Below are positions 4,640-6,798 of a DNA stretch of 44,743 nucleotides, piece after piece. Location of the stretch: positions 1 to 44,743 of the forward strand of contig CADCIZ010000005.1 of NCBI GenBank assembly GCA_902801685.1. Direction: 5' to 3'. The DNA comes from an uncultured Erysipelotrichaceae bacterium (lineage in GTDB: Bacteria; Bacillota_I; Bacilli_A; RF39; UBA660). The notes beneath the pieces were generated by a model, which did not search any database, had not been told where the DNA came from, and saw only the letters and a list, made by a program, of their open reading frames with translations. The translations under genes and the position numbers were made by a program. How positions within the stretch are numbered: the stretch's first letter is position 1; the number at the start of each line of letters is the position of its first letter.

Positions 4640-4800
4640 GAAAACTTGCACAATGACATGCGGAATAATTGCACAACAAAATATAGAAAATTTGCACAGC
4701 AATAAATATTATTAATATATTTAGATGATGCAAAAGAAAACTTTGATACAAGATGAAGATACAGGGAGTTATATATAACAGCATTAAAAAATTAATTTGC
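4640..4800 (+). repeat. iterated TTGCACA motifs; decayed cassette promoter
   Basis: TTGCACA occurs near 4645, 4669, 4691 and 4797, with a variant TTTGCGCA near 5268. The copies at 4796 and 5267 are the -35 elements of the two antisense-RNA promoters of the cassettes. The copy near 4690 is followed after about 19 bases by TATATTTAGATGATG, which resembles the cassette layout TATTATGTATATAGATGAGG. It is therefore probably the remnant of a third copy. No coding region is visible here. Confidence 0.45.
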
Positions 4801-4825
4801 ACAAATCTAAATTATATGATATTAT
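4796..4825 (+). promoter_or_regulatory. antisense RNA promoter, cassette A
   Basis: TTTGCA (4796-4801), an 18-base spacer, and TATTAT (4820-4825) with TG upstream (extended -10). The layout is the same as in cassette B at 5267-5296. Confidence 0.6.
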
Positions 4826-4853
4826 GTATATAGATGAGGAATACTCATATAAT

Positions 4854-4892
4854 AAAAAAAGGATACGTTTGATGTGCTAATCAGACGCTTCC
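4854..4892 (-). terminator. terminator of the peptide mRNA, cassette A
   Basis: Read on the minus strand, GGAAGCGTCTGA pairs imperfectly with TCAAACGTATCC and is followed by seven T. The same DNA encodes a 5' hairpin of the opposing + strand RNA, so one inverted repeat serves both transcripts. Confidence 0.5.
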
Positions 4893-4908
4893 TCAAAATT
4901 TTTTGGGC

Positions 4909-4950
4909 GGCATCTGAGACAACATTGTTGAATCAGATGCCTTTACTTAT
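4909..4950 (+). terminator. terminator of the antisense RNA, cassette A
   Basis: GGCATCTGA (4909-4917) pairs with TCAGATGCC (4933-4941), with CAAC/GTTG stacked inside, followed by TTTACTTAT. Confidence 0.6.
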
Positions 4951-5042
4951 CTTACGATAAGTGTTATTATCAGCGATATAATTATTACTAATAATAGAAA
5001 TATAAAAGTATACAGAATTTTTTCTCTGTTAATATTCTTCAT
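4947..5042 (-). CDS. 31-residue hydrophobic peptide, candidate type I toxin A
   Basis: This small minus-strand gene starts at ATG 5042 and has a strong SD (GGAGGA, 5048-5053) five bases upstream. The peptide has a short charged head (MKNINREK), one membrane segment made almost wholly of I, L, V and F, and a final Arg. It is preceded by its own promoter (-35 TTGTAC, -10 TATAAT) and faces a convergent antisense RNA that starts on the + strand. Size, charge pattern and RNA layout fit membrane-acting type I toxins. I do not recognise the sequence as Fst, TxpA, BsrG or Ibs. It shares only general character with the peptide of cassette B. Confidence 0.62.
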   Translation of the reverse strand: MKNINREKILYTFIFLLLVIIISLIITLIVR

Positions 5043-5130
5043 ATTTGTCCTCCTATAATATCAAGATAAAGGCCAAAACCCTCTGATAATAATAGAAGGA
5101 AGCATCTGAATTTCAAACGTATCCGGTGAC

Positions 5131-5159
5131 ATTATAACACAAATGGACAAGCAGTACAA
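5131..5159 (-). promoter_or_regulatory. peptide mRNA promoter, cassette A
   Basis: On the minus strand: TTGTAC (5159-5154), a 17-base spacer, and TATAAT (5136-5131) with an upstream TGT. The predicted start at 5124 is exactly the first G of GGATACGTTTGA. The long 5' leader (about 80 bases) before the peptide is typical of type I toxin mRNAs. Confidence 0.7.
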
Positions 5160-5266
5160 TTAAATAGAGGTAAGATATTTGTAAAAGTTTAAGTAAATAT
5201 ATATATTCTTGTTATAAAAAAGACATAAACAATATTCTATCGCTTTAATTGATTTCTAAAAAGTAA

Positions 5267-5296
5267 TTTGCGCAAAACTAAATTATGTGCTATTAT
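5267..5296 (+). promoter_or_regulatory. antisense RNA promoter, cassette B
   Basis: TTTGCG (5267-5272), an 18-base spacer, and TATTAT (5291-5296) with TGC before it. It is closely conserved with cassette A through the downstream TATATAGATGAGG. Confidence 0.6.
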
Positions 5297-5321
5297 GTAT
5301 ATAGATGAGGAAACCTCATAT

Positions 5322-5362
5322 AATAAAAAAGGATACGTTTGAAGTGAGAATCAGACGTCTCC
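5322..5362 (-). terminator. terminator of the peptide mRNA, cassette B
   Basis: On the minus strand GGAGACGTCTGA pairs with TCAAACGTATCC and is followed by TTTTTT. It is the mirror of the 5' hairpin of the + strand RNA, as in cassette A. Confidence 0.5.
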
Positions 5363-5375
5363 TAACTTAAGGGGC

Positions 5376-5415
5376 ACATCTGAAATAGGCTTATTATATT
5401 TCAGATGTTTTTTTC
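5376..5415 (+). terminator. terminator of the antisense RNA, cassette B
   Basis: ACATCTGAAATA (5376-5387) pairs perfectly with TATTTCAGATGT (5397-5408) and is followed by a run of T. Confidence 0.85.
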
Positions 5416-5489
5416 TAATTCTTTGAAATTAGTATAATGATAATTAGAACTAGAATGATTACAACTAAATGTAATTCTCTCTTTGTCAT
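5415..5489 (-). CDS. 24-residue hydrophobic peptide, candidate type I toxin B
   Basis: The minus-strand ATG at 5489 is preceded by AAAGGA at nine bases. The peptide begins MTKRELHL and continues as one run of V, I and L, ending SKN. It is the same kind of short charged head plus single membrane segment as peptide A, but shorter and not clearly alignable. It lies inside an equivalent cassette, with opposing promoter, direct repeats and terminators in the same places. Being too small for gene finders, it would be missed by routine annotation. Confidence 0.6.
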   Translation of the reverse strand: MTKRELHLVVIILVLIIIILISKN

Positions 5490-5584
5490 ATTATCACATC
5501 CTTTCTTAAACCAAACCCCACTAAAGTATAAGCCAATTTTTTTAAGAAAGGACAACATCTGAAATTCAAACATATCCGAGATGT

Positions 5585-5615
5585 ATTATAACACACATTA
5601 GATGAGAGGTGCCAA
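5585..5615 (-). promoter_or_regulatory. peptide mRNA promoter, cassette B
   Basis: On the minus strand: TTGGCA (5615-5610), a 19-base spacer, and TATAAT (5590-5585) in the context TGTGTTATAAT, the same as in cassette A. The predicted start falls at GGATATG (5577). Confidence 0.6.
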
Positions 5616-5685: not shown

Positions 5686-5856
5686 GTACAATGGTATTAG
5701 AAGGCAAGGAGGAGATAAATATAATAATGAGATACCACTAGTGTACATGCTAGAAAAAATATGTTCTAATTTAATTAGAGTTGATGACTACTCAATAGTA
5801 TATTTTATAGTTATTTGACATGCTATAAAATATAAGTGTGAAAGGATATGATAATA

Positions 5857-6798
5857 ATGTTAAATAATATGTCAAAGAAAAAAAGGAGAGGTTTTACTCT
5901 CATCGAATTAGTAGCAGTATTAGTTATTATGGCTATACTTGCTCTTATTGTAACTCCATTAGTTATGAACATAATTAGAAAGGCTAGAATCTCTGCAGAC
6001 AAAAGAAGTATTGATGCATATGGAAGAAGTATTGAACTAGCAATTGCTTCATATTTGCTTGATACAGGTAAATTTCCAACATCAGTAGATCAACTTACAA
6101 TTGAGTATAGTGGAAATGAAGTAGTATGTTCAACAACACAAATAAACAGTGATTCATCAGTATATCTAACTGGTTGTAAAGTAAAGAATCGTAATGTAGA
6201 AGGATATAAATATGGAAAATATGAAGCTCCAACATATGATACATATTCTATAGGTGATCATATCTCATATAATGGAGTAACTTATTATGTAATTGAAGAT
6301 AGTAGCACTACTAATGATACAGTAAAATTACTAAAAGAAACTCCATTATTAAAAACAGAGATTGAAGGATATAATATTGATGGGTTAACTGTATCTGGGT
6401 CAACATATGGAGAGATACAATATGGAAGTTCAACGGATTATGAAACATCTGCAGTAAAGAAAGTAGTAGATAAGTGGGCAGAAGGTGCAGTTAAATCTGG
6501 AGATACCGCAATTGCAAGATTGATTAGTGTTGATGAATTAACAAATAATCTAGGCTATGTATATGACGACATTAATCCAACAAACATTTTTTATGTTTCT
6601 ACTGAATCAACACCAATCTGGGTATATAATATTCTAGGTTATTGGACAATGTCACCCTTCCTAGACTCATTGTATATTTGGAGAGTTGACTATGATGGCC
6701 GTCATATACGGGAATTTGATCCTTCAATTGCTATTAGTACAGTTTGTCCTGTTCTAGAAATTTCAAAAACTGCTGAATTAACTAAAATTGCTTCATAG
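5857..6798 (+). CDS. type IV prepilin-like protein with C-terminal lectin-like domain
   Basis: The N-terminus is a classic class III signal: basic head (SKKKRR), cleavage site G|FTLIE with Glu at +5, then a 20-residue hydrophobic helix (N-methylation domain). After an alpha-helical pilin stretch, residues from about 120 on form a second domain with YSIGDHISYNGVTYYVI, ARLISVDEL and STPIWVYN..YWT, ending CPVLEIS. The same domain is found in the Tad-locus protein at 18980-19782. Its end resembles DUF6273/C-type-lectin-like domains (W..D.DG...RPV). I choose ATG 5857 because AAAGGA (5841-5846) is too close to the ATG at 5848. It needs a prepilin peptidase, which is not in this window. Codons in the last 60 residues (CCC, TTC, GGC, CGG) are richer in G and C than in the rest of the gene. 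Confidence 0.78.
   Translation: MLNNMSKKKRRGFTLIELVAVLVIMAILALIVTPLVMNIIRKARISADKRSIDAYGRSIELAIASYLLDTGKFPTSVDQLTIEYSGNEVVCSTTQINSDSSVYLTGCKVKNRNVEGYKYGKYEAPTYDTYSIGDHISYNGVTYYVIEDSSTTNDTVKLLKETPLLKTEIEGYNIDGLTVSGSTYGEIQYGSSTDYETSAVKKVVDKWAEGAVKSGDTAIARLISVDELTNNLGYVYDDINPTNIFYVSTESTPIWVYNILGYWTMSPFLDSLYIWRVDYDGRHIREFDPSIAISTVCPVLEISKTAELTKIAS

What the first reader, a model, noticed from the sequence alone, without database searches (positions are those of the whole stretch)
5267..5615. Cassette B: a second tandem copy with compensatory changes
Every element of cassette A recurs in the same order, with a different 24-residue peptide. The direct repeat changed in both positions (GCATCTGA became ACATCTGAAAT in both copies), and the first hairpin changed in both arms (ATGAG/CTCAT became ATGAGG/CCTCAT). 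Coordinated change is evidence for selected RNA pairing. The peptide body is much more diverged than the RNA frame, which suggests that specificity and peptide evolve together.
Basis: partly seen in the sequence, partly recalled or inferred. Interest (0 to 1): 0.85.

Follow-up and report, generated by a model that had tools for sequence, protein, structure and literature searches.

The report
Par-like RNA-controlled toxin gene family
The sequence holds one of about ten copies of a compact gene pair, a tiny membrane peptide (probably toxic) and an overlapping antisense RNA that should silence it, belonging to a previously unclassified family that is widespread in one group of uncultured gut bacteria and reuses a single RNA stem sequence at three places.

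Summary
Cassette B (5267-5615) is real and is a full second copy of cassette A. It is best read as a type I toxin-antitoxin (TA) locus with the layout of the enterococcal par locus: convergent promoters, shared terminator, repeat in the toxin leader, and a sequestered Shine-Dalgarno. Its peptide and RNA match no known family. The family has about 10 copies in this genome, occurs in all 7 genomes of the genus and in 62 of 117 genomes of the family, and was found in none of the genomes sampled from elsewhere in the phylum. The direct-repeat co-change is confirmed and generalises: antitoxin hairpin 2, the terminator and the toxin 5' hairpin carry one stem sequence that switches together. The stated hairpin-1 change between A and B is wrong, because its 5' arm ATGAGG is the same in both; across the family that hairpin does covary. 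The peptide is under purifying selection (dN/dS 0.17). Pairing to the toxin leader shows no own-over-foreign preference; only the terminator overlap does. A and B are an old pair whose antitoxin 5' halves stay alike within a genome, which suggests gene conversion. Transcription and toxicity are untested.

The parts
5268..5296 (+). Cassette B antitoxin-RNA promoter: TTGCGC (5268-5273), extended -10 TGCTATTAT (-10 hexamer 5291-5296)
   Evidence: sequence; an extended -10 motif (TGnTA...) is found in 102 of 126 cassettes
5305..5319 (+). Cassette B antitoxin hairpin 1, ATGAGG-AAA-CCTCAT, at the 5' end of the RNA
   Evidence: family hairpin: stems of 4 bp or more in 149 of 170 cassettes, GAAA loop in 92, stems vary compensatorily (CAAG/CTTG, GAAG/CTTC, AAGC/GCTT, TGAG/CTCA)
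5331..5362 (+). Cassette B antitoxin hairpin 2, GGATACGTTTGA...TCAGACGTCTCC
   Evidence: fold; covariation above phylogenetic null; G-U wobbles on the plus strand
5376..5415 (.). Cassette B shared bidirectional terminator, ACATCTGAAAT (5376-5386) / ATTTCAGATGT (5398-5408) and T-run; ends both RNAs
   Evidence: sequence; 96% of cells paired and 8 of 8 pairs with double changes in 127 sequences; phylogenetic null
5415..5489 (-). Cassette B toxin ORF, MTKRELHLVVIILVLIIIILISKN (24 aa)
   Evidence: the commonest (25-aa) class of the peptide family has dN/dS 0.166; no match in Pfam, NCBIfam or PHROGs
5500..5551 (-). Cassette B Shine-Dalgarno stem: GAAAGG (5505-5500) inside TTTAAGAAAGG paired with CCTTTCTTAAA (5551-5541)
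   Evidence: folds; family: pairing probability of the SD hexamer 0.88 against 0.59 with shuffled upstream sequence
5555..5577 (-). Cassette B toxin-mRNA 5' hairpin (called UH here): GGATATGTTTGA / TCAGATGT; the plus-strand direct repeat ACATCTGAAAT is 5555-5565
   Evidence: sequence; co-variation with terminator and hairpin 2; G-U wobbles on the minus strand
5585..5590 (-). Cassette B toxin promoter -10 TATAAT (plus strand ATTATA); -35 weak or undefined
   Evidence: across the family TATAAT is exact in 76% of cassettes against 3.4% of shuffles, mostly 6-8 nt upstream of GGATA
4797..4825 (+). Cassette A antitoxin promoter (TTGCAC 4797-4802, TATTAT 4820-4825)
   Evidence: 89% identical to B
4834..4848 (+). 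Cassette A hairpin 1 (ATGAG...CTCAT); the 5' arm ATGAGG is the same as in B
4861..4892 (+). Cassette A hairpin 2, GGATACGTTTGA...TCAGACGCTTCC
4910..4946 (.). Cassette A shared terminator, GCATCTGA / TCAGATGC
4947..5042 (-). Cassette A toxin ORF, MKNINREKILYTFIFLLLVIIISLIITLIVR (31 aa)
   Evidence: orthologue next to the B-type cassette in G001
5102..5124 (-). Cassette A toxin-mRNA 5' hairpin, GGATACGTTTGA / TCAGATGC

Best explanation
A chromosomal type I toxin-antitoxin locus, one of about ten paralogues. The minus-strand mRNA starts at GGATA..., folds its first ~30 nt into a hairpin, then hides its Shine-Dalgarno in a second stem, encodes a 24-aa hydrophobic peptide with a basic N-terminus (probably a membrane-acting toxin), and ends in a terminator. 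A convergent plus-strand RNA of about 110 nt (three hairpins, the last being the same terminator read from the other side) is the antisense antitoxin. The two RNAs are fully complementary over the terminator region, which I propose gives first contact and partner specificity. They are also complementary between the toxin 5' hairpin and antitoxin hairpin 2 or the terminator 5' arm, because all three stems carry one sequence. The same identity lets the mRNA's 5' hairpin pair with its own 3' terminator arms (the predicted optimum for B), a closed inactive form. Antitoxin binding would keep the leader closed and/or expose the duplex to cleavage. Shown by sequence: layout, promoter motifs, structured antitoxin RNA, co-varying stems, selected ORF, SD sequestration (predicted). 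Inferred: transcription, toxicity, repression and the order of steps.
For: Convergent promoters: toxin TATAAT exact in 76% of cassettes against 3.4% shuffled; antitoxin extended -10 in 102 of 126. Structured antitoxin RNA: covariation score 0.101 against null mean 0.011, maximum 0.036 of 400; pair counts far above shuffles and slides. Opposite-strand G-U preference: hairpin 2 80% on the plus strand, leader hairpin 74% on the minus strand. Terminator/leader coupling: 105 of 131, 0 of 1500 null sets; stem families TCAGATG, TTAGGTG, TTGAGTG recur at both sites (that search was biased to similar matches). ORF: dN/dS 0.166. SD hidden: 0.88 against 0.59. 5'-3' closure in B with pairing probability about 0.95. 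Own against foreign terminator duplexes -74.7 against -28.9 kcal/mol. Copies kept at the same sites in different species. Par description: PMC7472228.
Against: No transcript, toxicity or binding data exist here. Leader-level pairing has no preference for the own partner. Long-range 5'-3' closure is the predicted optimum for B but not for A. The link of terminator 5' arm to leader alone is weak (P=0.04); the leader follows the 3' arm better, so mRNA self-pairing may matter more than antitoxin pairing. About 13% of antitoxin copies lack a recognisable toxin, including one in this genome.
Confidence: 0.82

Rival explanations
1. The stems look coordinated because quasi-palindrome template switching or gene conversion copies one arm into another, not because RNA pairing is selected. 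The cassette would then be a repeat-rich remnant or a miniature mobile element.
For: Within-genome homogenisation is visible: A and B promoter plus hairpin 1 are 97% identical in G001 against 82-88% between orthologues. All stems share one sequence, as arm copying would produce. Copies lie at many sites.
Against: Wobbles are G-U and not A-C, and on opposite strands for the two hairpins; arm copying is strand-blind. The ORF is under purifying selection. Promoters are conserved. Copies keep the same neighbours between species (dihydrouridine synthase and lysyl-tRNA synthetase flanks in L003 and L026; gene names read from the sequence).
Confidence: 0.1
2. The pair is real, but the peptide is not a toxin: it is a small regulatory membrane protein whose level is set by the antisense RNA.
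For: Known small membrane proteins also have one hydrophobic helix; there is no toxicity test; the copies are fixed in the chromosome at stable sites.
Against: Tight double repression (hidden SD plus full-length antisense), many paralogues, short hydrophobic peptides with charged ends: all typical of type I toxins (PMC7472228).
Confidence: 0.15
3. Direct member of the Fst/Ldr (par) family.
For: Every par layout feature checked is present: convergent promoters, shared terminator, direct repeats, SD-sequestering stem, 5'-end helix.
Against: None of 105 peptides has the tryptophan or PXXXG signature; no Fst or fstAT match. In par the direct repeats are separate from the terminator; here the terminator arm itself is the repeat.
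Confidence: 0.05

Closest known systems
par of plasmid pAD1 and chromosomal par_EF0409 (Fst/Ldr family, type I TA)
   Same: Convergent toxin and antitoxin RNAs, shared bidirectional terminator, direct repeat giving a second pairing site at the toxin leader, stem hiding the SD, helix at the extreme 5' end of the toxin mRNA; small single-helix peptide (PMC7472228).
   Different: Peptide lacks the Fst signature (no W, no PXXXG). The terminator arm itself is the direct repeat. The antitoxin is longer (about 110 nt with three hairpins, against about 40 nt) and has a second copy of the stem in hairpin 2. No match to Rfam fstAT.
txpA/RatA, bsrG/SR4, bsrE/SR5 (Bacillus type I TAs; from memory)
   Same: Convergent genes overlapping at their 3' ends, chromosomal, small hydrophobic toxin, RNA antitoxin, long-range pairing in toxin mRNA.
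   Different: Toxins are longer (about 30-60 aa) and belong to other families; no repeat shared between terminator and leader is known to me.
hok/sok (from memory)
   Same: Toxin mRNA with 5'-3' closed inactive fold; antisense RNA to the leader.
   Different: Sok lies in the 5' leader and is not convergent at a shared terminator; Hok is unrelated.

Membership tests
Type I toxin-antitoxin (general) | Small hydrophobic ORF that is really translated (coding selection) | tested here: met
   64 peptides of 25 aa: pN 0.112, pS 0.468, dN/dS 0.166; frame-shifted control not run
Type I toxin-antitoxin (general) | Antisense RNA overlapping or pairing with the toxin mRNA | tested here: met
   sequence overlap at the shared terminator; promoter motifs and covarying structure; transcription itself not tested
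Type I toxin-antitoxin (general) | Peptide toxic when free, relieved by the RNA | not testable with these tools
   needs an expression experiment
par (Fst/Ldr) | Convergent promoters with bidirectional terminator | tested here: met
par (Fst/Ldr) | Direct repeats that give a second complementary region at the toxin leader | tested here: met
   GCATCTGA / ACATCTGA(AAT) at 4910+5102 and 5376+5555; family coupling
par (Fst/Ldr) | Intramolecular stem hiding the SD and helix at the 5' end of the toxin RNA | tested here: met
   predicted only:
par (Fst/Ldr) | Toxin signature: W between helix and charged C-terminus, P/D/S/TXXXG motif | tested here: not met
   0 of 105 peptides with W, 0 with PXXXG; D/S/TXXXG not counted apart, but only 3 of 105 contain any G
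par (Fst/Ldr) | Match to Rfam fstAT (RF01797) | tested here: inconclusive
   none in the cassettes even at E<=5; genome search also empty, but its control genomes did not ring either
Known type I toxin families in Pfam/NCBIfam (Fst, Hol_Tox/TxpA, Hok, Ldr) | Profile match | tested here: not met
   30 members scanned; best is one member to HokA at E=0.12; short peptides limit sensitivity

The most novel reading that the evidence does not exclude
One exchangeable stem sequence, repeated in antitoxin hairpin 2, the terminator and the toxin 5' hairpin, works as a shared code: the toxin mRNA closes on itself 5' to 3', any antitoxin of the genome can invade the leader, and only the terminator loop sets the partner. 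About ten paralogues would then form a partly cross-regulated network, with orphan antitoxins as added buffers, kept in step by gene conversion of the antitoxin 5' half.
Probability: 0.3. Interest if true: 0.7.

Novelty: new variant of a known kind. Interest (0 to 1): 0.55.

Why it matters
Most known type I toxin-antitoxin loci come from cultured bacteria and were found by similarity to a few toxins. This family, in 62 of 117 genomes of one uncultured gut lineage with small genomes, is not in the Pfam, NCBIfam, PHROGs or Rfam libraries searched. It shows the par layout with an unrelated peptide, which suggests that the layout can arise or persist independently of the toxin. Its natural variation (several stem classes, many paralogues per genome, orphan antitoxins) makes RNA pairing rules and cross-talk between paralogous antisense systems directly testable.

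Tried and rejected
Rfam at gathering and E<=5: nothing. Pfam, NCBIfam, PHROGs and PDB profiles of the peptides: only chance-level matches. Mobile carriage: no match to the hairpin-2 pattern in viral contigs, none in plasmids, one 28-base chance match in phages. An unrestricted covariation screen over all column pairs gave no pair with E clearly below 0.1, because relatedness is strong; I therefore moved to targeted tests with a phylogenetic null. Leader-level own/foreign specificity: no signal. Possible association with prepilin-like genes: about 23 copies in this genome, and only 1 of 36 wider loci has such a neighbour, so not a general rule. My first hairpin-1 alignment was out of register and was redone loop-anchored. 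A literature search for this family found no description of it in the open-access library.

Full report
WHAT WAS CLAIMED AND WHAT IS THERE. The window contains two tandem cassettes, A (about 4787-5140) and B (about 5258-5615). The repeat finder pairs 73 nt of their left ends at 90% identity and their hairpin 2 at 87%. Each holds, on the plus strand, a promoter with extended -10, a short hairpin, an A-tract, a second hairpin and a terminator. On the minus strand each holds a promoter, a 5' hairpin, a stem around the Shine-Dalgarno (SD), a short hydrophobic ORF and the same terminator. The peptides are MKNINREKILYTFIFLLLVIIISLIITLIVR (A, 31 aa) and MTKRELHLVVIILVLIIIILISKN (B, 24 aa).

CORRECTIONS TO THE FINDING. 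The direct-repeat change is real: GCATCTGA to ACATCTGA at terminator 5' arm and leader, with the terminator 3' arm changing too. The claimed two-arm change in hairpin 1 is not: ATGAGG stands in both cassettes and only the 3' side differs. The high identity is confined to antitoxin promoter, hairpin 1, hairpin 2 (85-89%) and the leader hairpin (77%); terminator, SD leader and toxin promoter are 55-60%, like the ORF at 58%.

A FAMILY, NOT A PAIR. BLAST of B and a covariance model (R1) find about ten copies in the 1.31-Mb genome and copies in all 7 genomes of the genus. A pattern scan of named genomes gave at least 116 stretches, nearly all in records titled as uncultured gut Bacilli, Erysipelotrichaceae or Tenericutes. 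Across 392 genomes of the phylum, 8 rang, all in the window's family; inside the family 62 of 117 genomes rang, with up to nine copies each. None in plasmids or viral contigs, and only a chance match in phages. The members used were selected by their hairpin-2 sequence, so hairpin-2 conservation in that set is partly built in; the 40 divergent cassettes L183-L222 came from the model instead.

IS THE ORF REAL? Among 64 peptides of 25 aa, pN is 0.112 and pS 0.468, dN/dS 0.166. Peptides are 21-32 aa, 71% hydrophobic, nearly all with a basic-acidic N-terminal motif (TKRE, NKKD, NREK) and usually a basic last residue. They match nothing in Pfam, NCBIfam, PHROGs or the PDB. So the peptide is conserved, not free to drift; A and B types differ because they are old lineages.

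IS THE RNA STRUCTURE REAL? On 127 antitoxin RNAs, 84.8% of cells pair, with 206 double changes against 49 in shuffles, and sliding the partner destroys the signal (the alignment was fitted to the model and the rows are related). With a phylogenetic null on hairpin 2 and the terminator (113 sequences, 19 pairs), the covariation score is 0.101 against a mean of 0.011 and a maximum of 0.036. Hairpin 1, aligned on its loop, has a GAAA tetraloop in 92 of 149 and varies compensatorily; the search there required at least 4 pairs. Wobbles give an independent test: in hairpin 2 they are G-U rather than A-C on the plus strand (122 to 30), in the toxin 5' hairpin on the minus strand (173 to 61). That is what two oppositely transcribed RNAs under selection predict, and strand-blind arm copying does not. 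Counts are not independent across relatives.

ONE STEM, THREE PLACES. Hairpin 2 (ACRTTTGA/TCARAYGT), the terminator (xCATCTGA/TCAGATGx) and the toxin 5' hairpin (AYRTTTGA/TCAGATGx) carry one sequence. The outermost base, not used for the search, equals the terminator 3'-arm base in 105 of 131 cassettes (null 63.5 +/- 20, 0 of 1500); against the 5' arm it is 83 of 131, P=0.04. The base one step further out still tracks the 3' side and not the 5' side. This favours pairing of the toxin leader with the toxin mRNA's own terminator (complement of the plus-strand 3' arm) at least as much as with the antitoxin. ViennaRNA puts B's full mRNA in exactly that 5'-3' closed form (pairing probability about 0.95), whereas A prefers two local hairpins.

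SPECIFICITY. Antitoxin-to-leader duplex energies show no own-partner advantage in G000 or G001 (P 0.58 and 0.38). Over the terminator region the own duplex is far stronger (-74.7 against -28.9 kcal/mol on average; A on B -31.9), trivially because it is the same DNA read from both sides. So cross-protection between A and B through the repeats is possible but weak, and discrimination should lie in the terminator loop.

HOW A AND B ARE RELATED. G001 (RUG12438; its contig 1 length matches the named record of L045) has the same A-type, B-type, prepilin-gene order, so the pair is older than the species split. ORF and terminator follow orthology (84/82% and 92/92%), while promoter plus hairpin 1 are as alike or more alike between A and B within a genome (89% in G000, 97% in G001) as between orthologues (88/82%). 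I read this as gene conversion of the antitoxin 5' half; a formal test was not run. ORF distances correlate with hairpin 2, leader and terminator more than with promoter plus hairpin 1.

MECHANISM. Shown: layout, promoter motifs, structures under selection, coding ORF, predicted SD sequestration (0.88 against 0.59). Inferred: both RNAs are made; the peptide is a membrane toxin; the antitoxin first pairs at the terminator loop and then with the leader; the bound mRNA is silent or cleaved. The layout is that described for par_pAD1 (PMC7472228). It works like par; it is not shown to be a member, because the Fst toxin signature was tested and not met.

VERDICT. A new lineage-specific family of type I TA loci with par-like wiring, and an unusual reuse of one stem.

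Noticed in passing
L011 (G000:C2), model match at G000:C2:50992-51112 (-): Orphan antitoxin: full antitoxin RNA and terminator directly followed by an unrelated gene, next to an intact cassette (C2:51376). About 17 of 128 cassettes look like this.
   Followed up: partly
window 5848-6798 and about 23 paralogues in G000: Large family of prepilin-like proteins (N_methyl domain) with variable C-terminal parts, scattered over a 1.3-Mb genome; one directly follows cassette B, one follows the C14 cassette.
   Followed up: partly
L018 (G3_C18c) and L021 (G6_C7): In two divergent cassettes the sequestered SD starts a leader ORF that overlaps the presumed toxin ORF, reminiscent of mok/hok.
   Followed up: no
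L018 around 2100-2480 (G3_C18b): An antitoxin RNA without its toxin lies next to a gene that looks like a Phd/YefM-type type II antitoxin (by eye from the translation).
   Followed up: no
L008 and L031 (G0_C32, G4_C10): Hairpin 1 carries an extra insertion of about 14 nt between its arms in both species.
   Followed up: no
L040 and L148: Cassettes whose terminator stem (AACTCAAC..., GAGTCTAAC...) no longer matches hairpin 2: possible partial switches of the stem code.
   Followed up: no
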